Below are positions 5,935-19,665 of a stretch of DNA of 64,000 nt, piece after piece. Location of the stretch: the NCBI GenBank assembly GCA_963575745.1, contig CAUYUJ010001336.1:677931-741930 (forward strand), written 5' to 3'. How positions within the stretch are numbered: position 1 is the first letter of the stretch; each line of letters starts with the position of its first letter. The notes under the pieces are model-generated. The model saw only the letters and a program-made list of their open reading frames with translations, was not told the DNA's origin and did no database searches. This stretch comes from Prorocentrum cordatum (lineage: Eukaryota; Sar; Dinophyceae; Prorocentrales; Prorocentraceae). The position numbers were made by a program, and so were the translations under genes.

Positions 5935-6235
5935 GCAGGCCAGCTGCGGAGCTCTTGGGCGCAGCAATGAATTTAGCGGCATCGAAAGCATTGATCTAGA
6001 TCTACGAGAAGCCTGATATCGGTCTGCGACCCGAGCATCGACCGGGCAACTATTCAAATTCTTCCACGTTTTAGCCGGACGTTCGGTTTAGGTACTTGAT
6101 CTCGCCATTTAGGGCAGCTACAGATCTCTCAGTAACACCAGTCGAAGCAACGTCGAAAACATTGGTGTAGAGCCTCGCGAGGCCTGAGCTCGGCCTCCTA
6201 TCCGATCTATGACCGACACATTGCTCTCACTCTGC

Positions 6236-6277
<42 letters not shown>

Positions 6278-7170
6278 CAAAAAAAAAAAAAAAAAAAAAA
6301 CGCGTTCGGCTTGCGGACTTGACCTCAAGATTTCGAGCAGCTGAATAGCTCCCAGTCGCACGAATTGATTCTGCACCGTCGAAAACATGGGCCTAAAGCA
6401 CCGGCAAGCCTGATATCGGTCTGCTACCGGGGCCATGCCCGAAAAACGACTCGCACTCTCCATAGTTGTTGCGCACCCATTGTGTTTTTAGTGACATGAT
6501 CTCGAGATTTAGAGCAGCTGCAGAGCTCGCAACCAAACGAGCCGATGCAGCAGTATCGAGGCCATTGGTCTAGAGCATCGAGAGGCCCGTGCTCGGTCTT
6601 AGAGCTATGACCGAAACACGACTCGCACTACGCAGTATTGTTTTTTTTGGAATCGTTCGGTTTGAAACGTGTTTTTCAGATTTAGAGCAGCTTACGATCT
6701 TCCAGCCACAGCATTCGATTCAACATAATCGACAGCATGGGTGTAGTGCATCGAAAGACTTGAAATCGGTCTGCTACCAGAGACCTGACAGAAACACGAC
6801 TCGCACATTGCATTTGTTTGGCACGCGTTCGAATTACGGGCTTGATTCCTACATTGTAATCAGCTGCGAAACTCCTAGCCAGACGAGTCGATTCAACAGA
6901 ATGGAAAACATTGGCCTAGAGCATCGACAGGCCTGAGCTGGGTCCCCAACCAGAGCTATCACCGCAAACGGCTTGCATTCTGCTGTATTTTTCGGTGCGC
7001 GTTCGGCTTGCGGAAGTGGTTCCGACATGTAGAACAGCTGCAGGGCTCTTCGTCGCACGAGTTGATTCAGAAGCATCGGGCATTGGTCTTCAGCGTTGAA
7101 AGACCTGAGCTCGATCTCCTATCCAAGGTACGACCGACAAACTATTCGCACTCTACAACATGTTACCTCG
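5935..7170. repeat. Diverged ~173-bp tandem satellite, about seven units
   Basis: The landmark CAGCTGCAGAGCTC, in diverged form, recurs near 5,941, 6,115, 6,340, 6,520, 6,689, 6,862 and 7,037. Each unit also carries a version of CATCGAAAACATTGG, GGCCTGAGCTCGGTC and ACACGACTCGCACT. Spacing is 169-180 bp, except for one interval lengthened by the poly(T)/poly(A) block. Units are strongly diverged, so the array is old. Confidence 0.75.
6238..6300. repeat. Poly(T)-poly(A) block inside a satellite unit
   Basis: About 25 T residues run directly into about 35 A residues (one C interrupts). The block lengthens one satellite spacing and can form a perfect A/T hairpin. It may be an insertion or a replication product. 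Confidence 0.8.
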
Positions 7171-9283: not shown

Positions 9284-9441
9284 ATTCTCCCGCTCGCGCG
9301 CCAGCGAGCTGTCTCCGAGCGCGGCCGCGGCGTGCGCGCGCGGGGCGGCCCAAAATGGGCAGGCCCGTCCCGCGCGCTCAAGCCGGGGCGCCGCGCGTCA
9401 GACGGTGGAGTCCGTCTGGTCGCCGAGGTCGGCGAGGCAGC
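9284..9441 (-). repeat. B2 split direct repeat (element 3' end)
   Basis: 158 bp matching 9,530-9,687 at a constant offset of 246 with no mismatch seen. It begins ATTCTCCCGCTCGCGCG on the plus strand directly after the ATG repeat. Confidence 0.9.
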
Positions 9442-9475
9442 GCCCGTCAGCCTTAGAGTGGGAGAGGAGGGAGGG

Positions 9476-9531
9476 GGGCTGAGAAGCTGCGGAGACAGCA
9501 GGAGCTTGCTCACAGAGAATAGAAGAAGCAT
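9476..9531 (-). repeat. A2 split direct repeat
   Basis: 56 bp identical to 19,610-19,665 (contains CGGAGACAGCAGGAGCTTGC). It lies between B1 and B2 and shares the AT dinucleotide at 9,530-9,531 with B1. Confidence 0.9.
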
Positions 9532-9687
9532 TCTCCCGCTCGCGCGCCAGCGAGCTGTCTCCGAGCGCGGCCGCGGCGTGCGCGCGCGGGGCGGCCCAAA
9601 ATGGGCAGGCCCGTCCCGCGCGCTCAAGCCGGGGCGCCGCGCGTCAGACGGTGGAGTCCGTCTGGTCGCCGAGGTCGGCGAGGCAGC
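9530..9687 (-). repeat. B1 split direct repeat
   Basis: Identical to B2 at 9,284-9,441. It starts 11 bp after the ORF2 stop codon on the coding strand. The minus-strand B1/A2 junction GGGAGAATGCTTCTTC is what joining the two outer ends of the element would create. Confidence 0.9.
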
Positions 9688-9698
9688 CATACCCGTGC

Positions 9699-12600
9699 TC
9701 AAGGACCTTGCGAAGTGACAAGGTTTTGGCGGGCGGCCGCAAGCAGGGCAGGCCAAGCGGCGGGGCCGACTTGGAGGAACGAAGCGACGAGGCGGTCGCT
9801 GGCGGTGGCGAAGAACAAGATACGAGCCCGCGCGTGCTCGGGGAGCGCAGCAAGAACTGTAGAGGCGGCGGCGGCTTGCAGGTAGCGTTCGGCACTGGAA
9901 GCCTGACGCCAGCGCCCTCGCCAGAAGACGCGAGGGACGTCTTCCGTGGCGATATAAAAGTCTGTTGCGCCAGAGCCCCGCAGACAAGCGGGCGTCAGGT
10001 TGAGCCCCTGACCTGCTTTGGCAAGGGGGACGCCCAGAGCCAAAAGCAGATGATTCCACCGAGTACGGAAGCCGCTCGCACCGAAGGGGGCGAGAGGATC
10101 GGTGGAAGCCAGCCTCCCAAACACAAGATTCAATATCTTCACCGTGCCCCGATCGGAGCAGCGAGCATGTTGCGTCGGGTACGTTCTTCTGGTCTTTGGA
10201 ACAAGAATCGAAAGAAAAGCATCTCCTTCGACTTCGAGACGGTCGCACGGAAGCGACAGGTCACAGCGGCGGGACGCCAGCAGTTCGCCAGGCCTGAGGA
10301 ACATCGTGAAGCCCATGAGCAGCAGTGCCGCCATCACAGGCCAGTCCCAGGCGAGACAGAGCCCGACCATGGCGCGCAGCAGCGCGCGTGGCAAGGGGGG
10401 ACGGAGCTTTGGCGGCTCCGCAAGCTTCCATTGTTTCGCTACGTCCCAAGCTTCTGTCAGAAAGGCCTTCCAATGCGGATGGGCGCTCTGGATTCCCAAG
10501 ATGGCGTGGACCAAAATATAATGGGGAAAACCTGCATCATGAAGCCACACGCCGAAGGTCGCTAGGAAACGGGCGAGAAGTATCCCGCTTCGGTAAAGCG
10601 TGGCGGGTGGCACGCCAGTGTGTTCTGCTAACCACAGCTCGAAGGCATCAATCGATCTCGAACGACGGTCGAGATACGCGGAGGTGAGGTGAGAATCGCG
10701 CACGAAAGGAGTGCGCGGAGGGCGAGCGGGCGCGGGCGGCGCAGCTCCACTAAGCCCTTGGCCGGCGGTCGGCGCCGCGGCTCCCAGAGAGATGCAGAGG
10801 CCGCAGACGCACCACAGGATGAGCGCAGGGCGGCCAGGGCTCGGAGAGCTGATGAGTGTGGCGGCCCTCCTGCGCCTGGACGCGTAGAAGGGCGGAACGA
10901 GGGCGTCCCGCCCGTCGGTCTCGAACCCCGACGCCTCAGCCAGCATCGCCCGCGCCGAGCTGAAGGACCCGCCCATGTTACGGTAGGCGCGGCGAGCCCC
11001 TGCTTCGATCTCGGCTGGCAGAGCGTCCCCTTTCTCGAGGGTCGGCCAGTCAAAAGGCGGGCGCGGCTCGGCACGCGCCGCTGCGGCTGCTTCGGCCAGC
11101 TCGGAACGAGCTGCCGAGGACGTGAGGCCCGAATGATGAGGCACGGGCACCACCTCCGCGAAGGCGTCGAGGATCTCGGACGGAGGGGAATGGGATCCCC
11201 ACAGCGCTGCTGGGATGGCGCCGTGACTGTCCTGCACGTGGTACAGAAAGTCGAAAAGGCAGGCCAGTTTGCCCGCGCGCCGCCGCTGCTCGATCTTTGA
11301 GCCGAGCCCGATGCCACGGATGGCGCCCGCTCCCATGGCCTGGAGGTCAGCATGTGCGGGAATAGCCTCGGGCTCGACGACGGCCGCGTAAGGATGCAGC
11401 CACGAGGCCTCGTCGATCGGCTCGGCGCCGCCTGTCTGAAACAGGCGCTTGTAGGCGTGCAGGGCCCGCAGGAGGCAGTGCAGGTCATCCTTGCCTTCGG
11501 GCTCGGCGGCCCCTGCGGGTGCGAAAGTCCTCAGCCACGACGCCGCACTCTGGAAGGCAGCTTGCCAGGCGGGGCCCCACCTCACTACCGTGATCTTCTC
11601 GCCGCCGATGTTGAGGCGCCACGCTAGGGCGCTCGCGGCCCCTGGAGGCAGGGGCTGCTCAGCGGCCGCCGAGGCCGTGCGCCGCGCTGCGAAGGCTGCA
11701 GCCGCGGCGCTTTCAGCGTCACCGCTGTGAGCGCCGCTGAGGGGCAGCTCGGGTTCAGAAGCTCGGCCACGCACGAAGCCGCTCGAAGACCCCCCTTCCT
11801 CGGCGGCACGCCCTCCTCCCTGCGGGGCCGCAACAGCATCGCTGGAAGAGCGCATGCCTACCGAAGTCGGAGTAGCCTGAGCAGCGGAGTCCGCGCGGGA
11901 GCCGGCTGGCCGCTGCGAGGTGGCGGGGCTCGGGCGACGCTTCGGAGCGACTCGAGGAGAGCGCACCGCGCGACGCCCAAGCGGCGCACGTGAGCGCGAC
12001 GCCGCACGCCCCCTAGAGTGGTGACGGGGTGGCGACGGCGGCGGGGGAACGGGCCGCGGCGGCTCGGGGCCAGCACGCGGGCCGCGGCCCCGAGAGCGGC
12101 TGCGAGCCGCAGCGCGAGCGGCGGGCGGAGAGGTCTCCGCGCGGCGCGGGAAGGCCGCCTGCAAGCGGCGGAGGACCTCGGGGTTCAGGCCCGCCACGAC
12201 GCGCTCGAGGTCCACCGAGGAGTCAGTGAGAGCACTCAAAACGACGTCCTCGAGCTCCGTCGGAGAGTCCTCCTCGCACGCGGGCTCCGCTCTCGAACGG
12301 CTGCGGGCGCTCGCTGGAGGGGACCCCTCAGGAGTGTGCGGGCCCTCCGATGCCTCTCCCGCCGGCGGCCCCGACGGCTCCTCAGGCGCGCTCGAGACGT
12401 CGATGGGAAGCGAGGAGCCGCCTCCCGAGGGCGAAGTGTGATCAGTCCCGTACGGGTTCGGCGACCGCGTACGGCTGCGGGCAGGGCTGCGGCTCCGCGG
12501 TGGAGGGCCCACTCCCGCGGCGGAGCTGGGGCGTGCGGCACCTGCCCAGTGGCGCGCATTAGCTGTGCGACGCGACCTGCGGCCAGGCGTCGTGGCGGCT

Positions 12601-15600
12601 CCCTCTTCAGGGGCGGGAAGCGCCGCCGTCGAAGCCCGCCGCTGCTTCTTGGCGCGCTTGTTGCGCGCGGCGCCCGTGCGCGAGGCGGAGTGTGGTGCGT
12701 GACCACCGCGATTGGGCTGGTCCTCGACAGCCTCCTCCCGCGGGCCCAAACGGGCGCGGACAGCGCGCCCCTCGCGACGGCTGAAGCTGGACGCTGGGTC
12801 GTCGGCAGGCCTCGCCAAGGCGCGCGGGTCCTCAGCCTCCACATCGGCCAGGGAGCGCCCCGTGGACGACGCGGGGGCGTCCCCAGCACGAGCGGCACGA
12901 TCCGCATTGGCGAGGCCCGTCGAGACCTCAGCGTTGTGCAGGACGGCGCGCAGAGTTTTGCGCCAATCCCGACCCAGCTGGACGGGAGCCGTACGTGGCA
13001 AGCCCGCGGCCTCACGACTGGCGGCCTCGCGCAAGCGGCGGAAGTAGGCGCGGTCGGCCATCCCCTCCGCGAGCTCGGCGCGAGCGACGGCACGCTCGCC
13101 TTCGCCGCGTGCTGGAGCCTGCACCGTGCGCCTTGTGGCGTCGGCCCGCGCGGTGCGGAGCGCGTCGAGCTCCACGCGGCCGCGCGACACGGCGGAGGCG
13201 AGGATGGCATCGGACTCAGCCGCCCGCGTCGCGAGGGCGGACGAAACCCTGCTCGGGAGAGGCGCGCCCGAGGCGGGGAGGGCAGCCCGAGGGGCCAGCT
13301 CGGCACTCGCCAGGGCGACCCGCGAAGAGACCGCCTCCTCGAGCGCCTGAAGGGCCATGGCCGACCCAGGAGCCAGCTTGCCCTTGCGGGCGCCCTTCCC
13401 TGCCGCTTTTGCCTGGGCGAAGGCGCGAGCGGCAGGACCGTCGCCGCCCGTGCTAGGAGCAGCGGGCGGCGCGGCGGCCTGCGAGAGCGCCTGGAGCAGC
13501 ACTGACTTGGCGTCACAGAGCTGCTTCCACTTGAGCGCGCGGGCTGCACGCTCGCCAGCCCCCAAGTGCGCAGGGGTCCTGTCTGGATGGTAGACTAAGG
13601 ACTGGCGCCTGAAGGCGGCTTCGATGGTGCTGCGCGAAGCCCCGTCCACGACGCCAAGCAGCTGGCGAGACGCGCTCACCCTGGCCGCTCGCTGGAAGAC
13701 GCGGGGGGTAGCAGCCGTGGCCCCCTTTGGCGCTTCCTGCGAGCCGACGCGCGACGAGCCCCCCCCGATCGCAGGCGGAGGGGCCGCTGCGGCCTTGGAG
13801 CGGAGGGCCAGGGGTGGCGGGCGCTTGGCGGCTGGGGGAGCCGAACCAGCGCTGGCGGCGGCAGGGTCGGGGCCGCGCGCGCCGCCCTCCGAGAATACAG
13901 GCGCCTTGGGCGAGGCGTCTGCTGTGGACGTGAAACGCCGGCCGCTGTCAGCGAAGAGCGCGTTGCGAGGCCCGCGACGCTCTCCGCTGGCGAGAGCAGC
14001 TTCGCTGTTGCTCTCGGCGGCGCCCGAGGGGTCAAGGGCGTCGCCCTGGGCGCCGTCGCCGGCGGCGTCGGCGGCCATGCCCGCACCCAACGGGAGGGTG
14101 GGGGCGGCCGCCCAACGGTGGCTGAGCAACCCCTCGGGGCCTCGAGCCACAAGCTGCGCAACAAAACGGCCCCAGAGACAAGTAGGGAATGCCGAGCGAG
14201 AGTCGGCGTACGCGATGCAATCAAAGCGAGTAAATTCTCCTCTCTCTGCTTCCACTAACCAGGCGGGAGGGGCACGGGACGGGGGCCTCACCGCGCGGTT
14301 GCGCGTGGGATCGTCGGCCCTATGCACGTCCGTGGGCACGTACATGCCTCCCATATATAAACCTCCTCCTATCACATAGGGCAAAGTGGTCGAGAGAACA
14401 TGTGATAAACCAGGAGAGCTGCTGCGCCCGTGCGCGGTCGCGCCCAAAGCTACTTTTGAATCCAAGAGGACGGGGATCCGAGAGTCGGGGAGGCGAACAC
14501 AACAGTATTTGCACAGACTCTTATACACGGTTGTCTCAAGGATATTGATGTGACGAGGCATGCGAAACTCCCATTTGTACGCGAGCCGAAAGCGCAGCGA
14601 CTCTGATAGCTCGGTGACCCAGCGCGGCGCGACAGGGGGCTCAAGAGAAGGGAGCCCCAGGTCGTGATGCAGCTGGGTGAGCTCAGGGCCCACGGGCACG
14701 CCGCGGCTGAGCACGGCGAGGAGGCTCCGATTGTGCAGAATCGTGTGCCACCCCCCGTGCTCCGATCTGCGCCACAGCTCGGCAGAGAGCTGCGGGCTGA
14801 TGGGAGCGCGGACAACGCCCCCCCAGCCGAGAGACGCGTCCGTACCGAACAACTCGGGGCAAGGCTGCGCCCGAAGGTCGGTTATAGCCGTAAAGGCTAG
14901 GAAGGTGCAGGCCAAGAGCTCGTCGCGAACATAAGGGGGCAGGTCGTATTCGATGCCGTCCTCGGTCGCCAGGCGCGACAAGAAGTTGTAGACGTGCGTA
15001 AAGATGGCGAGTAACGGGCGGCGATAGAGGAAGACCTGGACCCAGCAGCCCACCAGAGAGGCTAGCAGGGAGCGGGTGGTGATCCCGAGGTAGATTTGGA
15101 TCAGGGTCAGCCTGCACAGGGCCACTGTCCGCACAAGAGGAGCGCAGACGATGCCTATGCGCCCCTCCACCTCGGCGCCCACCACCACTTTGTGCGTTTC
15201 ACCGCGCGCGCGCTTGCCTGGATGCTGTATCAGGCCCACGCGCGGGTAGCCCGCATCACACGCGGCAAAGACCTCACGATCACGGCGACACGGGTCGTCG
15301 GGGCGAGGAGCGGAGCCACGCCACGAGAGCTTCTGAAAACCTGTGTGGTCATCAATATTCAGCATCTCGACAAACGGGCCCCGCGGAAAGGGCGAGCGGT
15401 GGACAACCTGCTCGTGAGGCCTCAAAGCCCCGAAGCTGTGCAAGACGCCTTCATGCGCAGAGTTGGCAATCTCCACAGCCATGTTGTCGCCCATCGCCAG
15501 AGCATTGAGGCAGGGCGCGACATCCACACCCTCCAGCTCGGGGCGCCAGGCTCGAAATGCCTTGAAACGAGAGGATGGCAGGCGAACGCGCAGGGCGTTA

Positions 15601-16658
15601 CGTCTGGCACGCGCGGGAGGGACGCGGAACGTGTAGTAAAATTCCCGAAGGTCGTCACAAGAAACTGCCAGCCATTCCCCAGGTGCCAGCCCCAAACGGC
15701 ACAGGAGGAAACCTTGGCCAAGGCGCTGGGTGCTGGAAGAAATTGAAGCACAGCGGCTGTTCACAACCGTGGGGTTCAGGATCAGCCTGTCGAAATCGCT
15801 GTCCTTCGGTACCCTGAAAGCTCCACAGGCTTCATCCCAGGCGAGGTCCGAAGCAGGAGTCAGGTACAGGGCGCCGCAGGCATCCCACTTCTGGAGTAGG
15901 GCCCACAGCTCGGCGCGGTCCATATGGACGCGCGCTCCCTTCTGGCCAGCAGGCCACTCTGATGCCGGTAGCCGCATAACCTCAGGATCGAGGAAAGCTT
16001 CGCGGACTCGCGCGTCAGAGAGGAAGGGAACGGGATCAAACTCTGGCGAATAATCCCACTTGATGCGAGATGCCCTGACTTTCAAATCGAAGGGCTCGGC
16101 CTGGGTGGAGTCCCAAGCCGCCGCAGTCGCCAACGACCCAGGCACCGGAGGAGCGCCGGTCGGGCAGTGCCGCATGGGGGCAGGCACGGAAGAAGAGGAG
16201 GTGAAAGAGGCCTCCAGAGCTGCAACATGGGTGGCCAGGCCATGGAGCGAGACCTCGGTGGAGTCGAACTTGGCGAAAGCCCGACCTAGGTCGCTCTTGC
16301 CGCCACGGGCAAGGCGAACTGCGATCCGACACAACCGTTCGATACGGGTGCGGACGCCCTCCTGGCAGGGCGAGACCGTGGCACGGACGCGAGCCTCGGC
16401 GGGAGCGAGGCTGGGATGACCCAAGGTGAGCCAGTTCAACGCAATAACGGAATACTGCGCGAGCGTCCGCGCCGCGCGCCGCAGTCTCCAGCGCTCCCTG
16501 CGCCTCGCCGACAAGCCGTCAGGCGGGGGACCAAGAGGAGGAGCAGGCGGGCACGGCCAAGGATCGCGGGGAGGCGGCCCCAAAAGGTACGGACCGTCCC
16601 TGTCCATTGCACGCATAGATGAGCGGGAGAAAGAACCAAGAGAACATCGAGCACCCAT
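9699..16658 (-). CDS. ORF2 polyprotein: RT, RNase H, J domain, tyrosine recombinase
   Basis: Open frame of 2,319 residues from the first in-frame ATG (16,658); a second Met is at 16,616, and coding-like residues upstream suggest a non-AUG or frameshifted start. RT: motif A SCDDLREFYYTF (Asp pair near residue 335) and motif C LNIDDH (15,348-15,359, residue 434). RNase H: Asp in GTDAS (607), Glu in NILE (708), Asp in LLDSKVALG (733), then a DxxHRADDPTR motif. J domain at about 998-1060 with HPD at 13,581-13,589. Arg/Ser-rich linkers follow near 1390 and 1520, a globular region at about 1640-1800 and a hydrophobic stretch near 1950. Tyrosine recombinase: Arg of FLRPGEL (2122), Arg of ACLRGSGAT (2227), Trp of RGRW (2250), Tyr of ERYLQ (2259). 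It copies the element through RNA and should integrate a circular DNA. Confidence 0.85.
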   Translation of the reverse strand: MGARCSLGSFSRSSMRAMDRDGPYLLGPPPRDPWPCPPAPPLGPPPDGLSARRRERWRLRRAARTLAQYSVIALNWLTLGHPSLAPAEARVRATVSPCQEGVRTRIERLCRIAVRLARGGKSDLGRAFAKFDSTEVSLHGLATHVAALEASFTSSSSVPAPMRHCPTGAPPVPGSLATAAAWDSTQAEPFDLKVRASRIKWDYSPEFDPVPFLSDARVREAFLDPEVMRLPASEWPAGQKGARVHMDRAELWALLQKWDACGALYLTPASDLAWDEACGAFRVPKDSDFDRLILNPTVVNSRCASISSSTQRLGQGFLLCRLGLAPGEWLAVSCDDLREFYYTFRVPPARARRNALRVRLPSSRFKAFRAWRPELEGVDVAPCLNALAMGDNMAVEIANSAHEGVLHSFGALRPHEQVVHRSPFPRGPFVEMLNIDDHTGFQKLSWRGSAPRPDDPCRRDREVFAACDAGYPRVGLIQHPGKRARGETHKVVVGAEVEGRIGIVCAPLVRTVALCRLTLIQIYLGITTRSLLASLVGCWVQVFLYRRPLLAIFTHVYNFLSRLATEDGIEYDLPPYVRDELLACTFLAFTAITDLRAQPCPELFGTDASLGWGGVVRAPISPQLSAELWRRSEHGGWHTILHNRSLLAVLSRGVPVGPELTQLHHDLGLPSLEPPVAPRWVTELSESLRFRLAYKWEFRMPRHINILETTVYKSLCKYCCVRLPDSRIPVLLDSKVALGATAHGRSSSPGLSHVLSTTLPYVIGGGLYMGGMYVPTDVHRADDPTRNRAVRPPSRAPPAWLVEAERGEFTRFDCIAYADSRSAFPTCLWGRFVAQLVARGPEGLLSHRWAAAPTLPLGAGMAADAAGDGAQGDALDPSGAAESNSEAALASGERRGPRNALFADSGRRFTSTADASPKAPVFSEGGARGPDPAAASAGSAPPAAKRPPPLALRSKAAAAPPPAIGGGSSRVGSQEAPKGATAATPRVFQRAARVSASRQLLGVVDGASRSTIEAAFRRQSLVYHPDRTPAHLGAGERAARALKWKQLCDAKSVLLQALSQAAAPPAAPSTGGDGPAARAFAQAKAAGKGARKGKLAPGSAMALQALEEAVSSRVALASAELAPRAALPASGAPLPSRVSSALATRAAESDAILASAVSRGRVELDALRTARADATRRTVQAPARGEGERAVARAELAEGMADRAYFRRLREAASREAAGLPRTAPVQLGRDWRKTLRAVLHNAEVSTGLANADRAARAGDAPASSTGRSLADVEAEDPRALARPADDPASSFSRREGRAVRARLGPREEAVEDQPNRGGHAPHSASRTGAARNKRAKKQRRASTAALPAPEEGAATTPGRRSRRTANARHWAGAARPSSAAGVGPPPRSRSPARSRTRSPNPYGTDHTSPSGGGSSLPIDVSSAPEEPSGPPAGEASEGPHTPEGSPPASARSRSRAEPACEEDSPTELEDVVLSALTDSSVDLERVVAGLNPEVLRRLQAAFPRRAETSPPAARAAARSRSRGRGPRAGPEPPRPVPPPPSPPRHHSRGRAASRSRAPLGRRAVRSPRVAPKRRPSPATSQRPAGSRADSAAQATPTSVGMRSSSDAVAAPQGGGRAAEEGGSSSGFVRGRASEPELPLSGAHSGDAESAAAAAFAARRTASAAAEQPLPPGAASALAWRLNIGGEKITVVRWGPAWQAAFQSAASWLRTFAPAGAAEPEGKDDLHCLLRALHAYKRLFQTGGAEPIDEASWLHPYAAVVEPEAIPAHADLQAMGAGAIRGIGLGSKIEQRRRAGKLACLFDFLYHVQDSHGAIPAALWGSHSPPSEILDAFAEVVPVPHHSGLTSSAARSELAEAAAAARAEPRPPFDWPTLEKGDALPAEIEAGARRAYRNMGGSFSSARAMLAEASGFETDGRDALVPPFYASRRRRAATLISSPSPGRPALILWCVCGLCISLGAAAPTAGQGLSGAAPPAPARPPRTPFVRDSHLTSAYLDRRSRSIDAFELWLAEHTGVPPATLYRSGILLARFLATFGVWLHDAGFPHYILVHAILGIQSAHPHWKAFLTEAWDVAKQWKLAEPPKLRPPLPRALLRAMVGLCLAWDWPVMAALLLMGFTMFLRPGELLASRRCDLSLPCDRLEVEGDAFLSILVPKTRRTYPTQHARCSDRGTVKILNLVFGRLASTDPLAPFGASGFRTRWNHLLLALGVPLAKAGQGLNLTPACLRGSGATDFYIATEDVPRVFWRGRWRQASSAERYLQAAAASTVLAALPEHARARILFFATASDRLVASFLQVGPAAWPALLAAARQNLVTSQGP
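11813..11862 (+). repeat. 50-bp internal duplication, copy in ORF2 linker
   Basis: Matches 16,933-16,982 with one mismatch (contains GCCGCAACAGCATCGCTGG). In ORF2 this copy encodes GMRSSSDAVAAPQGG on the minus strand. Confidence 0.85.
13490..13670 (-). other. J domain (DnaJ-like) inside ORF2
   Basis: The minus strand reads QLLGVVDGASRSTIEAAF, then RRQSLVYHPDRTP, then a second helix pair ending KWKQLCDAKSVLLQALS. This matches the J-domain plan: an L-G-V start, the HPD loop that stimulates Hsp70 ATPase (codons 13,581-13,589), and a later K/L-rich helix. Alternatives are weak because HPD sits at the right spacing between amphipathic helices. Its job here is unknown; recruitment of a host Hsp70 to the retroelement particle or complex is one inference. 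Confidence 0.75.
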
Positions 16659-16932
16659 CCCAACCTGGGACAGCGCTGCTGCCCAGTGGGTGATATCAAT
16701 GTTCGCGCCTGGGAACAGGCGCAGCAAGGCAGACAAGTCAGCGACGAATGGCGCGACTTTGGCAAGAGCAGCAGAGGTGCCTGAAGGAGAGCAAGCACCA
16801 GCAGGGACACCAACCTCAGGGGCTGCAGGCCCCCTGGAGGGCGCGCTCGACTGAGGCAAGCGTCGGCCAAAATGGCCCGAGGGATCCGAGAAGCGGTTCG
16901 GAGCAGAGCGAAGGGCGTGGTGGCGGAACGTA

Positions 16933-16982
16933 CTCCTCCCTGCGGGGCCGCAACAGCATCGCTGGAAGAGCGCATTCCTACC
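16933..16982 (+). repeat. 50-bp internal duplication, copy at the ORF1/ORF2 junction
   Basis: Same sequence as 11,813-11,862, here in the ORF1-ORF2 interval and in a different frame from ORF2. The same peptide is encoded in the frame at 16,436-17,077. It may be a template-switch product or a scar from the fusion of the two ORFs. Confidence 0.85.
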
Positions 16983-17107
16983 CTCACGCCCTCGCTGTGC
17001 CCAAACGCGCCTAGCAACCGCAACAGCGTCGGTGCAGTCTGTGTGCGGCGGCGTACCCCGGCCCCCCGCAGGCCCACCCTTCCAGGTGGCGGGCGCCGAA
17101 GGCGCCT

Positions 17108-19048
17108 TCAGTCTTTCTTGGGCACCGCCTTCGGCGCCTTGGAAGCACCCTGGGTCTTGAAGGGCTGCTTCGCAACCTTGGGCTGCTTGGGCTGGTGAGG
17201 AGGGTGCTTGGGGAGCGCGACGGCGCGCTCGGCGTCGAGACGCGCCCGAAATGCTTGCAGCTCCTTCACGTATTCGCCCTGCGCCGACAGCCAACGAGGG
17301 TCCACCAGAGGTGAAAACGGGGTCTGGGCCTCGCGCTCCGTGTGAAGACTCGTCACGCGACACGGGGGAGGCTCCAGTCCTGTGAGGAACCAGGCGGCTT
17401 CGAGATAGCCGCGGTCCCCCGCCAGTTGGTCGATGAACATGCACTGACACGTCAGTAGAGTCTGGACTCTCTCGGGATTGCCCTCTTCGCAGGCCCGCCA
17501 CAGCTCGGCGCTGAGAAAGGCGAAATGCGTCAGCAACTCGTGCGTCGTCGGCTGAGCCCCCAACGGACTGTGCTCCCGAAAGTACTGATGCATGGCCATG
17601 GGGGTCACGGCGCTGACTTCCACGCCTAGGACGCGAGCCAGATTCTCCTTCATCAGCCCTCGCACGTCGGGGCCGTGCTGTATCAGCGCTTGCTGCCACT
17701 CGCGCCTCCGAGCAATGCCCCCCATCTGAGCCGATACGGGCGCGGGCTCGCCCGAGCTCGCGGGCGGAGATTGAGCTGAGTCGCTCAGGGTCCCCAGCAG
17801 CGGATGGACGGTTGGACGATGGCCCCGCCCCTGCTGCAGAAGGAGGGACTGGTGCAGGCACTGTAGCATGAGGCTGAAGTCCGTCGGATTGGCCGTATGG
17901 GGCGGCTCTAACCCGTCGGCGCCGCCCGCCTCGGCAAAGCCGTCGACCGCAGCGGGATGGGCTAACCCAGGTGGCGGCGGAGGGCCCATCGTTCCGAAGC
18001 CCGACGAAGGGGCCCGAGGGACAGCCAGAGAGCGCGCCTTTTCCCACGCCGAGACCAGCGCGGAGGTCGGACCCTTGGGACGCGCGGAGACCCGCTGCGG
18101 GGCCACGGGCGCGTGGGACAGGACGGCCTCGATCCCCGCAGGGTCCAGCCCGAGGCGCACCGCTTCGTCGCTGAAGAGCTGAGGCACCTCGGGCCGATCG
18201 CTCCGAGCAGGCGGCTCGGGGCCCAGCGATTCGGGTCGGCCGACCATCGTGGAGGCTGCGTGGGCTGCAAGCAAAGCGCGCATTTCGGCAGCTACTTCGG
18301 CACGGGTCATAGGAGCCCCGTCGTCCAGAGCCGCCGCAGGGGCACCAGGAGCGATCGAAGCGGGGCCCGCGACCCGTGGCGGCGCGGCTGCGCCCGTGCG
18401 CTTCGGGGGCGGGCCGCGAGGCGCTCCAGCGTCCGCGGGAGATCGCGCACTTGGGGCCGGGCGTTCGGCGTCCTCGTCGGCCGCGAACCCTTCGGGCTCT
18501 TCCATCTCGTCGGCAGAGTGATAGGGAGTAGCCCGATCGGCCCCTGGGAGCGGCTCCTCCCCTGCGGTAGGCGGGGCGCCGTGCAAGCGTGCGTAACCCT
18601 CGCGAAGCACCCGAACCCCTGAAGGGTGTGGCCAATAGACGCGGCCCCGCACCTCGGCGAAGGGGACGATGGCCGCGTCCTCGCCGACCTCTAGAGGGTA
18701 AAGCGACTCGAGCTCGAGCTCTGCAACCTCGATATCCACGACGAGGACGGAGGCAGTAGTGGCGAGCGGCCGCGAAGCGGCCCCCTGGAGCTGGGCGTCC
18801 ACTAGCTGGAAGGGGCCTATCATCCCCGCAAAACCCCCCGCCTCGGCAGCCTCGAGCTCCGCCGTAGAGCGAAAGGCGCCAGGCAGGGCCAGGAGGATGC
18901 CCCCTTCTCGAGACGCGAGGGGGATAGCTGCCCAGCTGGTATCGCCGTCGTCTAAACGCCAACGTGCGTAGCCGCGAGCCGTGGGAGCTGCGAATGGGTA
19001 GAGCTCGGGCCATAGAGGCCCTCCGCCAACTGGTGGCAGCTCGGCCAT
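17108..19048 (-). CDS. ORF1, gag-like protein of the DIRS-order element
   Basis: 646 residues from ATG 19,048 (sequence begins MAELPPVGGG). The amino-acid mix is natural: an acidic N-terminal half (for example VVDIEVAELELESLYPLEV), a Pro/Ala-rich middle, and a structured C-terminal half around WQQALIQHGPDVRGLMKENL and HELLTHFAFLSAELW. The last 30 residues are Lys/Gln/Pro-rich and basic, suiting nucleic-acid binding. No CCHC zinc knuckle is seen. By position it is the gag equivalent, expected to package the RNA. It ends 450 bp before the first ORF2 ATG; the ORF2 frame is open through that gap and differs from the ORF1 frame, so frameshifting or splicing may link them. Confidence 0.7.
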   Translation of the reverse strand: MAELPPVGGGPLWPELYPFAAPTARGYARWRLDDGDTSWAAIPLASREGGILLALPGAFRSTAELEAAEAGGFAGMIGPFQLVDAQLQGAASRPLATTASVLVVDIEVAELELESLYPLEVGEDAAIVPFAEVRGRVYWPHPSGVRVLREGYARLHGAPPTAGEEPLPGADRATPYHSADEMEEPEGFAADEDAERPAPSARSPADAGAPRGPPPKRTGAAAPPRVAGPASIAPGAPAAALDDGAPMTRAEVAAEMRALLAAHAASTMVGRPESLGPEPPARSDRPEVPQLFSDEAVRLGLDPAGIEAVLSHAPVAPQRVSARPKGPTSALVSAWEKARSLAVPRAPSSGFGTMGPPPPPGLAHPAAVDGFAEAGGADGLEPPHTANPTDFSLMLQCLHQSLLLQQGRGHRPTVHPLLGTLSDSAQSPPASSGEPAPVSAQMGGIARRREWQQALIQHGPDVRGLMKENLARVLGVEVSAVTPMAMHQYFREHSPLGAQPTTHELLTHFAFLSAELWRACEEGNPERVQTLLTCQCMFIDQLAGDRGYLEAAWFLTGLEPPPCRVTSLHTEREAQTPFSPLVDPRWLSAQGEYVKELQAFRARLDAERAVALPKHPPHQPKQPKVAKQPFKTQGASKAPKAVPKKD

Positions 19049-19107
19049 CAATGGGCGCAGCCGAGGGAGCTGCCCCCTGAATGCTGGGCGTCTGCCCGCA
19101 CGAGCGC

Positions 19108-19663
19108 TCAGGGCCGCGGCGGAACCCCGTAAGCCAGCGCTCGCGCCGCACGGCGGTCCTGCTCAAAGGGGGCAGGAACCGCTCCGCGCGGCCAGGCGGA
19201 GGCCCTGAGCCTCCGCCACGCGTACGGGCCCAGCAGCCCGATGCAGCAGCCTGCGCAGGCGCTGCACGCGGCCGTCACCCCAAGGAGGGCGACGACCGTG
19301 CTGAGCAGCCAGGGCGAAACCCCGCCGCTCAGATCCACCGCCAGCCCGAGGCAGACGGTGGGGCAGGCGGAACCCGCCGAAGGGAGGGGGCAGAAAGCCC
19401 CCTCACCCTCGGACGAGTCCGCCTGCTGGATGGACCAGGCCGGCGCAGGAGGCCCTGGGTCCTGAAGAACAGAGAAAGGGGCAGACACGAGCCGCTCGTA
19501 GAGCGCGGCCCGCAGCCCCCTGAAGAAGATCTCCCCAGCGCCTCCGAGAGCCGCTTGTGCGAGCGCCTGCATAAGGCGTCCGCACGCGCGGCCGACGGGG
19601 GGGGCACTTGGGCTGAGAAGCTGCGGAGACAGCAGGAGCTTGCTCACAGAGAATAGAAGAAGC

Positions 19664-19665
<2 letters not shown>
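19108..19665 (-). CDS. Possible ORF0: 185-aa protein with a membrane segment
   Basis: The first codon is the ATG formed at the extreme 5' end of the element (19,663-19,665). The protein begins MLLLFSVSKLLLSPQLLS, signal-like, and near residue 125-155 has a hydrophobic run (WLLSTVVALLGVTAACSACA and following) that could span a membrane. It ends 60 bp before the ORF1 ATG. The frame stays open through the upstream CAT repeat as poly-Ile, so a longer fusion is conceivable. GC-rich DNA makes chance frames of this length common, so coding status is uncertain. Confidence 0.4.
19610..19665 (-). repeat. A1 split direct repeat (element 5' end)
   Basis: 56 bp identical to 9,476-9,531. Its outer T (plus strand, 19,665) is the first base of the adjoining TGATGATG microsatellite. 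Confidence 0.9.

What the first reader, a model, noticed from the sequence alone, without database searches (positions are those of the whole stretch)
13490..13670. DnaJ-type J domain with intact HPD inside a retrotransposon polyprotein
ORF2 carries between RNase H and tyrosine recombinase a segment with the J-domain helix plan and the HPD loop. Standard DIRS, PAT and Ngaro pol proteins consist of RT, RNase H, recombinase and sometimes a methyltransferase; a J domain is not part of that set. It may recruit host Hsp70 for particle assembly, RNP remodelling or nuclear delivery.
Basis: partly seen in the sequence, partly recalled or inferred. Interest (0 to 1): 0.87.

Follow-up and report, generated by a model that had tools for sequence, protein, structure and literature searches.

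The report
Chaperone J domain in dinoflagellate retrotransposon
A large family of jumping genes in what is probably a dinoflagellate genome carries, inside its replication polyprotein, the protein module that cells use to switch on Hsp70 chaperones; the module is real and shared by all six subfamilies looked at, although three of them have lost its key histidine-proline-aspartate motif.

Summary
The ORF is on the minus strand (ORF2 = 9702-16616, 2305 aa) with a PF00226 match at residues 986-1040 (window 13497-13661) and HPD at 13581-13589. The 133-aa piece scores 31.3 bits, above Pfam's cut-off of 27.8; whole ORF2 scores 25.7, below it. The element (9284-19665) has perfect split direct repeats (A-coding-B-A-B) and RT, RNase H and tyrosine recombinase: a DIRS-order element of dinoflagellate type.

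It is not a private insertion. In the 4.13-Gb genome 150 places scored (of 1726 candidates, the window's included) carry the J region at 91-100% identity without stops, and all six subfamilies sampled (A, B, D, E, H, I) have a J-like domain there. None of 109 relatives from the protein database has a Pfam J match; one, P0105, breaks off where J begins. Of 110 proteins examined, 105 carry a methyltransferase-like domain; ORF2 does not.

Against a simple co-chaperone story: HPD is intact in A, D and H but RPD in B, HPG in E, HPT in I. Best reading: a captured J domain recruits host Hsp70 to Pol in the HPD-bearing subfamilies, and the coupling was lost at least twice. Hsp70 recruitment is inferred, not shown.

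The parts
9284..19665 (-). whole element, from the start of A1 (19665) to the end of B2 (9284), 10.4 kb
   Evidence: perfect terminal and internal repeats; RT/RH/YR profiles
19610..19665 (-). repeat A1 (5' end of element), 56 bp, identical to A2
9476..9531 (-). repeat A2, 56 bp, identical to A1; shares two bases (AT) with the end of B1
9530..9687 (-). repeat B1, 158 bp, identical to B2
9284..9441 (-). repeat B2 (3' end of element), 158 bp
   Evidence: 21 loci in the genome, the window's included, hold the exact 19-base B end twice, 246-247 bp apart
17111..19051 (-). ORF1, 647 aa, gag by position only (no significant Pfam match)
   Evidence: role inferred
9702..16616 (-). ORF2, Pol, 2305 aa from the ATG used here; RT-RH-[linker-J-linker]-YR
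15003..16073 (-). reverse transcriptase (ORF2 182-538); D322 and D422-D423 among columns at least 95% conserved in 91 sequences
14235..14855 (-). RNase H (about ORF2 588-794; profile core 670-794); E694, D719, D768 among columns at least 95% conserved
   Evidence: the start is set by eye just before the TDAS motif at 592-595
13467..13706 (-). J domain with its near flanks (ORF2 971-1050); Pfam match 986-1040 = 13497-13661
13581..13589 (-). HPD tripeptide (ORF2 1010-1012)
9819..10643 (-). tyrosine recombinase (ORF2 1992-2266); R2108, R2213, Y2245 present, the box II histidine position is not H
   Evidence: motif assignment recalled

Best explanation
This is a DIRS-order retrotransposon of dinoflagellate type, with an unbroken Pol frame, whose Pol lacks the methyltransferase-like domain of its relatives and instead holds a captured J domain between RNase H and the recombinase. 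SHOWN: the J domain by sequence, its position, its presence in all six sampled subfamilies of this genome, the lack of a Pfam J match in the 109 relatives fetched from the protein database (one of them breaks off where J begins), an intact HPD in subfamilies A, D and H, and coding constraint on J in A, B and D. INFERRED: in the HPD-bearing subfamilies the J domain docks host Hsp70 on the Pol polyprotein and triggers its ATPase, so that Hsp70 folds or remodels the long Pol/RNA complex in cis. [quoted passage not shown] In subfamilies B, E and I the tripeptide has changed, so the same fold is probably no longer coupled to Hsp70 there.
For: J identity; E=3.8e-23 with this element left out of the profile (two-sequence search). 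Family feature: 150 places, 91-100%. HPD intact in subfamily A: 70 of 70 J-found copies, one being the window itself; 20 of 20 copies found through P0105, whose matches there end before J; 3 of 4 more with the frame intact; 5 of 5 more. D 12 of 12; H 2 of 2. Constraint: within A, J-core dN/dS 0.07 (0.02-0.15) against 0.20 for RH and 0.52 and 0.36 for the linkers. Between A, B and D, at dS of about 0.9-1.8, J 0.15-0.32 against linker 0.57-0.80 and RT/RH 0.04-0.06. Pfam DnaJ matches at the J segment in D, B, H (two copies), E and I. Basic helix II before HPD is kept (AFRRQSLVYHPDR in A). Domain swap: no MTase-like match in ORF2, and ORF2+P0105 sit beside MTase-bearing P0001 and P0106 in the tree (100/99).
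Against: HPD is changed in B (RPD, 18 of 18 distinct copies read), E (HPG, 3 of 3) and I (HPT, 1 of 1), so Hsp70 coupling cannot be essential for every subfamily. In the E/H comparison, where copies were found by RH and not by J, J dN/dS is 0.32-0.56 on 4-7 nonsynonymous and 3-5 synonymous changes, overlapping the linkers at 0.44-1.25. The 0.07 within A comes from copies chosen by J-protein similarity and is biased downward. J diverges faster than the enzymes (55-62% identity against 91-92%). No structure, expression or Hsp70-binding data. Pfam scores in B, D, E, H and I (16.7-24.1 bits) are below Pfam's cut-off. In the tree P0105 and P0106 fill only 42% and 26% of the columns.
Confidence: 0.5

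Rival explanations
1. The J fold is kept as a protein-protein or RNP docking module whose work does not need Hsp70; HPD in A, D and H is a relic of the captured gene.
For: HPD altered in three of six sampled subfamilies while the helix II/III core (FRR ... RWK.LCDAKS.LL) largely stays; E and H are near-identical in RH (tree) and 87-91% in J yet differ in HPG/HPD.
Against: HPD is invariant in the A copies (70 of 70; 20 of 20) and D copies (12 of 12). The D copies are near-identical to each other, but A and D differ in 45% of the J residues compared, so the tripeptide was held through much change.
Confidence: 0.27
2. The J domain recruits Hsp70 not for enzyme activation but for particle disassembly or nuclear delivery of the cDNA-recombinase complex.
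For: Position between RNase H and the recombinase; Hsp40s are reported to help vRNP nuclear import (passages of PMC7356129).
Against: Nothing in the sequence separates this from RT activation; no particle or localisation data.
Confidence: 0.18
3. Chance resemblance in an Ala/Arg-rich linker, or a private insertion or misassembly at this locus.
For: ORF2 as a whole scores below the Pfam cut-off; the linkers are rich in Ala, Pro, Arg and Ser; GC-rich DNA leaves frames open by default.
Against: Piece above cut-off; leave-one-out profile E=3.8e-23; 149 other places in the genome; six subfamilies, three of them (E, H, I) found by RH alone; codon use of J best in the ORF2 frame (0.12 bits per codon, weaker than RT/YR at 0.21-0.25 on which it was trained).
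Confidence: 0.02

Closest known systems
SymbioDIRS-Dnmt3 elements of Symbiodinium (de Mendoza et al. 2018, PMC5890265; passages read)
   Same: Dinoflagellate host; DIRS order; A-coding-B-A-B repeats; divergent RT that aligns badly with Pfam; accessory domain captured into Pol; two domain orders, as in RT-RH-MT and RT-MT-RH among the relatives here
   Different: Accessory domain is a cytosine methyltransferase, not a J domain; in the text the recombinase is in a separate ORF, here it is in the same frame as RT-RH-J
PAT and Ngaro superfamilies of YR retrotransposons (PMC3266345 passages)
   Same: RT, RNase H, tyrosine recombinase; split direct repeats (in the passages for PAT; for Ngaro recalled)
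   Different: The passages describe RT, RH, YR and, in DIRS1-like elements, a methyltransferase; no J domain
Polyomavirus large T antigens with a J domain (recalled; titles in the reference list seen)
   Same: A mobile/viral replication protein with its own J domain that engages host Hsp70
   Different: DNA virus, unrelated protein, J domain N-terminal; here internal in a retrotransposon Pol, with HPD lost in some subfamilies
Hsc70/Hsp40-activated hepadnavirus reverse transcriptase (reference titles and passages of PMC8903280)
   Same: A reverse transcriptase activated by chaperones, Hsc70/Hsp40 among them
   Different: There the co-chaperone is a host protein in trans; here a J domain is part of Pol itself

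Membership tests
J-domain proteins (PF00226) | Profile score above the curated cut-off | tested here: inconclusive
   31.3 bits on the 133-aa piece, above 27.8; 25.7 bits on whole ORF2, below; subfamilies B, D, E, H, I 16.7-24.1 bits, below
J-domain proteins (PF00226) | HPD tripeptide between helices II and III | tested here: met
   Met in the window and in subfamilies A, D, H; not met in B, E, I
J-domain proteins (PF00226) | Four-helix J fold | not testable with these tools
   structure prediction switched off
J-domain proteins (PF00226) | Stimulates Hsp70 ATPase | not testable with these tools
   needs biochemistry
DIRS-order (YR) retrotransposon | RT + RNase H + tyrosine recombinase in one element | tested here: met
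   profiles seeded with ORF2 and built from relatives match ORF2 at E 7e-127, 1e-43, 1e-87 (ORF2 is in the profiles); relatives found by RT; no Pfam RT or recombinase match in ORF2
DIRS-order (YR) retrotransposon | Split direct repeats or inverted repeats instead of LTRs | tested here: met
   A1 = A2 (56 bp) and B1 = B2 (158 bp), 100%; 21 loci with paired B ends, the window's included
DIRS-order (YR) retrotransposon | No target-site duplication | tested here: inconclusive
   both flanks are (ATC)n repeats, so a duplication of a few bases could not be seen
Tyrosine recombinase | Catalytic R-(H/K)-R-(H/W)-Y set | tested here: inconclusive
   R2108, R2213, the WRGRW stretch at 2232-2236 and Y2245 present; the box II histidine position reads P/A; motif plan recalled
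SymbioDIRS-Dnmt3 / MTase-bearing DIRS | Methyltransferase domain in Pol | tested here: not met
   MTase-like profile hits 105 of 110 proteins but not ORF2, even at E<=10

The most novel reading that the evidence does not exclude
A retrotransposon clade that replaced a methyltransferase-like accessory domain by its own built-in co-chaperone, and then repeatedly uncoupled that co-chaperone from Hsp70 (RPD, HPG, HPT). The HPD-less subfamilies could live as parasites of the HPD-bearing ones in the same nucleus, or could be escaping host control exerted through Hsp70. It would be the first Hsp70-recruiting retroelement polymerase, with a natural series of working and broken versions in one genome.
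Probability: 0.22. Interest if true: 0.88.

Novelty: new variant of a known kind. Interest (0 to 1): 0.74.

Why it matters
Accessory domains of retrotransposon polyproteins show which host systems an element must manipulate. Chromodomains, exonucleases, helicases and methyltransferases are described there (passages of PMC6338049, and PMC5890265). I found no report of a J domain (searches; only the top of the longer lists was seen, and the library lacks most subscription journals). If the J domain works, Hsp70 dependence of reverse transcription or integration becomes testable with one short recombinant segment, and the HPD-less sister subfamilies supply natural negatives.

Tried and rejected
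Rejected: chance resemblance and private insertion. A protein search with ORF2 900-1120 found nothing (7998 candidates scored, none at E<=0.001); against 5.8 billion sequences a weak J score cannot reach significance, so this is not evidence of absence. Viral contigs: no match to six peptide patterns. J in the relatives: the HPD letters occur in 13 of the first 104 proteins but in no J context (by eye). None of the 109 distinct relatives has a Pfam DnaJ match (104 at E<=0.01; the other five, plus P0002 again, at E<=0.1). The J profile gives at best E=0.0046 (P0031, two weak pieces, best single piece 0.24) and E=0.065 for P0105, whose J is cut off. Species: genome size 4.13 Gb, window GC about 62% and named relatives from Symbiodinium and Prorocentrum cordatum point to a dinoflagellate, perhaps P. 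cordatum (GC 59.7%, 4,750 Mb in PMC11453091). A 200-aa P. cordatum piece found at best 94% over its whole length (97% over 163 aa), so the species is not proven. MTase-bearing near kin in this genome: among 103 scored hits of P0106 (4576 candidates) its methyltransferase part was not matched, except perhaps at the edge of one broken hit; the P0001 search gave no usable answer. Insertion only into (ATC)n was rejected: 3 of 28 loci with an exact B end read CATCATC after it. The host source of the J domain was not found: the genome searches list only the best 150 or so.

Full report
WHAT WAS CHECKED. The finding placed a J domain with HPD at 13490-13670. The open frame is on the minus strand: one frame without stops runs from 19166 down to its stop at 9699, and from the ATG at 16616 it gives ORF2 of 2305 aa. 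DnaJ (PF00226) is the only Pfam family at E<=1 in ORF2: residues 986-1040, 25.7 bits, just under the curated cut-off of 27.8. On the 133-aa piece around it the score is 31.3 bits, E=2.3e-7, above the cut-off. Of solved structures, 44 sequences match at E<=1, most of them named as DnaJ homologues, best 3e-5. The HPD is ORF2 1010-1012, window 13581-13589.

THE ELEMENT. The element has split direct repeats in the order A1-coding-B1-A2-B2: A 56 bp (19610-19665 and 9476-9531) and B 158 bp (9530-9687 and 9284-9441), both pairs 100% identical; B1 and A2 share two bases. Identical repeats suggest a recent insertion (inference). Both flanks are (ATC)n. ORF1 (647 aa, 17111-19051) has no significant Pfam match; it is gag by position only. 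RT, RNase H and YR do not match Pfam but match profiles seeded with ORF2 and built from relatives (7e-127, 1e-43, 1e-87); de Mendoza et al. report that the RT of Symbiodinium DIRS elements aligns badly with Pfam (PMC5890265, passages). Catalytic acidic residues of RT and RNase H (D322, D422, D423; E694, D719, D768) are among the columns conserved in at least 95% of 91 sequences. The recombinase has R2108, R2213 and Y2245, but the box II histidine position is not H, so its activity is not certain.

RELATIVES ELSEWHERE. A search with the RT region gave 104 proteins, the named ones from Symbiodinium and one from Prorocentrum cordatum; a search with RNase H plus J region gave 5 more. None of the 109 has a Pfam DnaJ match: 31+28+26+19 = 104 members (E<=0.01) and six proteins (E<=0.1), of which P0002 was also. 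With profiles made here, 105 of 110 proteins (109 relatives plus ORF2) have a methyltransferase-like domain (57 RT-RH-MT-YR, 39 RT-MT-RH-YR, 9 with a domain missing); ORF2 has none even at E<=10. That this domain is a methyltransferase is my reading of its motifs and of the published parallel; PF00145 was matched by one member only. P0105, a metagenome protein of 494 aa, is 84% identical over the aligned quarter of the query, has no MTase match, and its last residues align with the start of J at the same place (AARLDHARRVLGV against AARVSASRQLLGV), on a contig of 1864 bases. That stump scores only E=0.065 with the J profile, but the 28 subfamily B places match P0105 to residue 490 or 492, stump included. 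In a tree of 72 proteins ORF2 and P0105 are sisters (100/99) and join P0001 and P0106, both with the MTase-like domain (100/99; P0105 and P0106 fill only 42% and 26% of the columns). I infer that the MTase-like domain was lost and the J domain gained on this branch.

COPIES IN THE OWN GENOME. The genome (4.13 Gb, 21,875 contigs) was searched with the J region: 150 places were scored out of 1726 candidates, the window's own among them, all 91-100% identical and without stops inside the match. Of 149 retyped open-frame lengths, 85 are at least 2305 aa and 62 at least 3000. In 70 copies read (one is the window itself) HPD is intact in 70 and no J has a stop. Further subfamilies, with letters of my own choosing, came from other queries. 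B: 28 places found with P0105, 16 of them read and two more; 18 of 18 have RPD in place of HPD. D: 12 places, found with the B-type J; HPD in 12 of 12. Twenty A copies found through P0105, whose matches there end before J, have HPD in 20; of four more, three are in frame with HPD and one is frameshifted at the start of J but still shows the letters; five A copies from the B-type search have HPD in 5. A search with P0106, which has no J, returned 103 scored places (of 4576 candidates), matching its RNase H part and including other subfamilies. Six of the 103 were read downstream and all six have a J-like segment at the same place: E (3 copies) HPG, H (2) HPD, I (1) HPT. DnaJ is the only Pfam family at E<=1 in the E, H and I stretches scanned: H 2.1e-4 and 7e-5, E 0.0082, I 0.0068. 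D and B give 3.9e-5 and 2.1e-4; D also has one weak other match at 0.054. A profile of A, B and D finds E, H and I at 5.2e-11 or better in a four-sequence search. In an RNase H tree of 23 proteins the 13 rows of the J-bearing group (P0105 counted in) lie on one side of a branch with moderate support (88/87); only 2 of 20 inner branches of that tree are well supported.

CONSTRAINT. Within A, pooled pairwise dN/dS is 0.07 (0.02-0.15) in the J core (70 copies), 0.20 in RNase H (59 of 70), 0.52 (67 of 70) and 0.36 (62 of 70) in the linkers before and after J, and 0.32 (0.09-1.01) in the J flank that was part of the same query; copies covering less than 90% of a region were left out of it. These copies were chosen by J-protein similarity, so the J value is biased downward; the flank comparison controls for this only in part. 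Between A, B and D (one copy each), at dS of about 0.9-1.8, amino acid identity is 91-92% in RT/RNase H (dN/dS 0.04-0.06), 55-62% in J (0.15-0.32) and 34-43% in the linker (0.57-0.80). In E against H and H against H, found without J, J has dN/dS 0.32-0.56 on few changes, overlapping the linkers at 0.44-1.25. Reading: J is constrained in A/B/D, clearly less than the enzymes and more than the linkers, and weakly if at all in E/H.

HOW IT PROBABLY WORKS. J domains bind Hsp70 through a basic helix II and the HPD loop and trigger ATP hydrolysis; changing the histidine abolishes this in known J proteins (both recalled). Here both features are present in A, D and H. The simplest mechanism is that Pol carries its own co-chaperone: Hsp70 is brought to the long polyprotein or its RNA complex, for activation of RT, for remodelling, or for release and nuclear entry; the sequence does not decide between these. 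Hepadnavirus RT is activated by chaperones, Hsc70 and Hsp40 among them (passages and reference titles of PMC8903280), which makes RT activation the leading version. The loss of HPD in B, E and I is the main evidence against a universal Hsp70 role. E and H are almost identical in RNase H yet differ in the tripeptide, and B groups with D and P0105 (94/89), so the change happened at least twice and perhaps three times (inference from the tree).

NOVELTY. DIRS elements with captured enzymes are known, including in dinoflagellates; a J domain in a retrotransposon polyprotein was not found in print by the searches (PMC library only; list tops seen, plus passages of PMC5890265, PMC6338049, PMC3266345, PMC11453091, PMC8903280, PMC7356129 and PMC9004415; the one DnaJ mention in PMC9004415 is a gene name in a table). 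I call it a new variant of a known kind.

Noticed in passing
window 11802-11862 and 16922-16982: A 61-bp stretch (93% identical) occurs both in the ORF2 linker downstream of J and between ORF1 and ORF2; similar peptides lie upstream of J in subfamily E (VGMRLSSDAVTAPQGG), H (VGTRPSSDAVAAPQGG in L142) and I (AGMRPASDADAAPQGG), so a small module seems to have moved around in this clade.
   Followed up: partly
L080 and other subfamily B loci after J, and ORF2 about 1223: A motif RAVLHNAEVxTGLANxxRAAR is shared by A and B although about 140 aa of the stretch between J and this motif are missing in B (counted by hand): possibly a second conserved piece.
   Followed up: no
window 6147-7154: Degenerate repeats spaced about 173 bp apart.
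   Followed up: no
window 9284 and 19665 flanks: The element sits in an (ATC)n repeat, but only 3 of 28 loci with an exact B end read CATCATC after it.
   Followed up: yes
G000:C1336:421122-424469 (L044): A second J-bearing copy of the same family lies on the window's own contig about 270 kb away.
   Followed up: partly
P0104: A 3912-aa P. cordatum protein carries RH, YR and a distant RT plus PF00145 (listed): another DIRS-like branch with a true cytosine methyltransferase; a 200-aa stretch of it has matches in this genome at up to 94% whole and 97% in part.
   Followed up: partly
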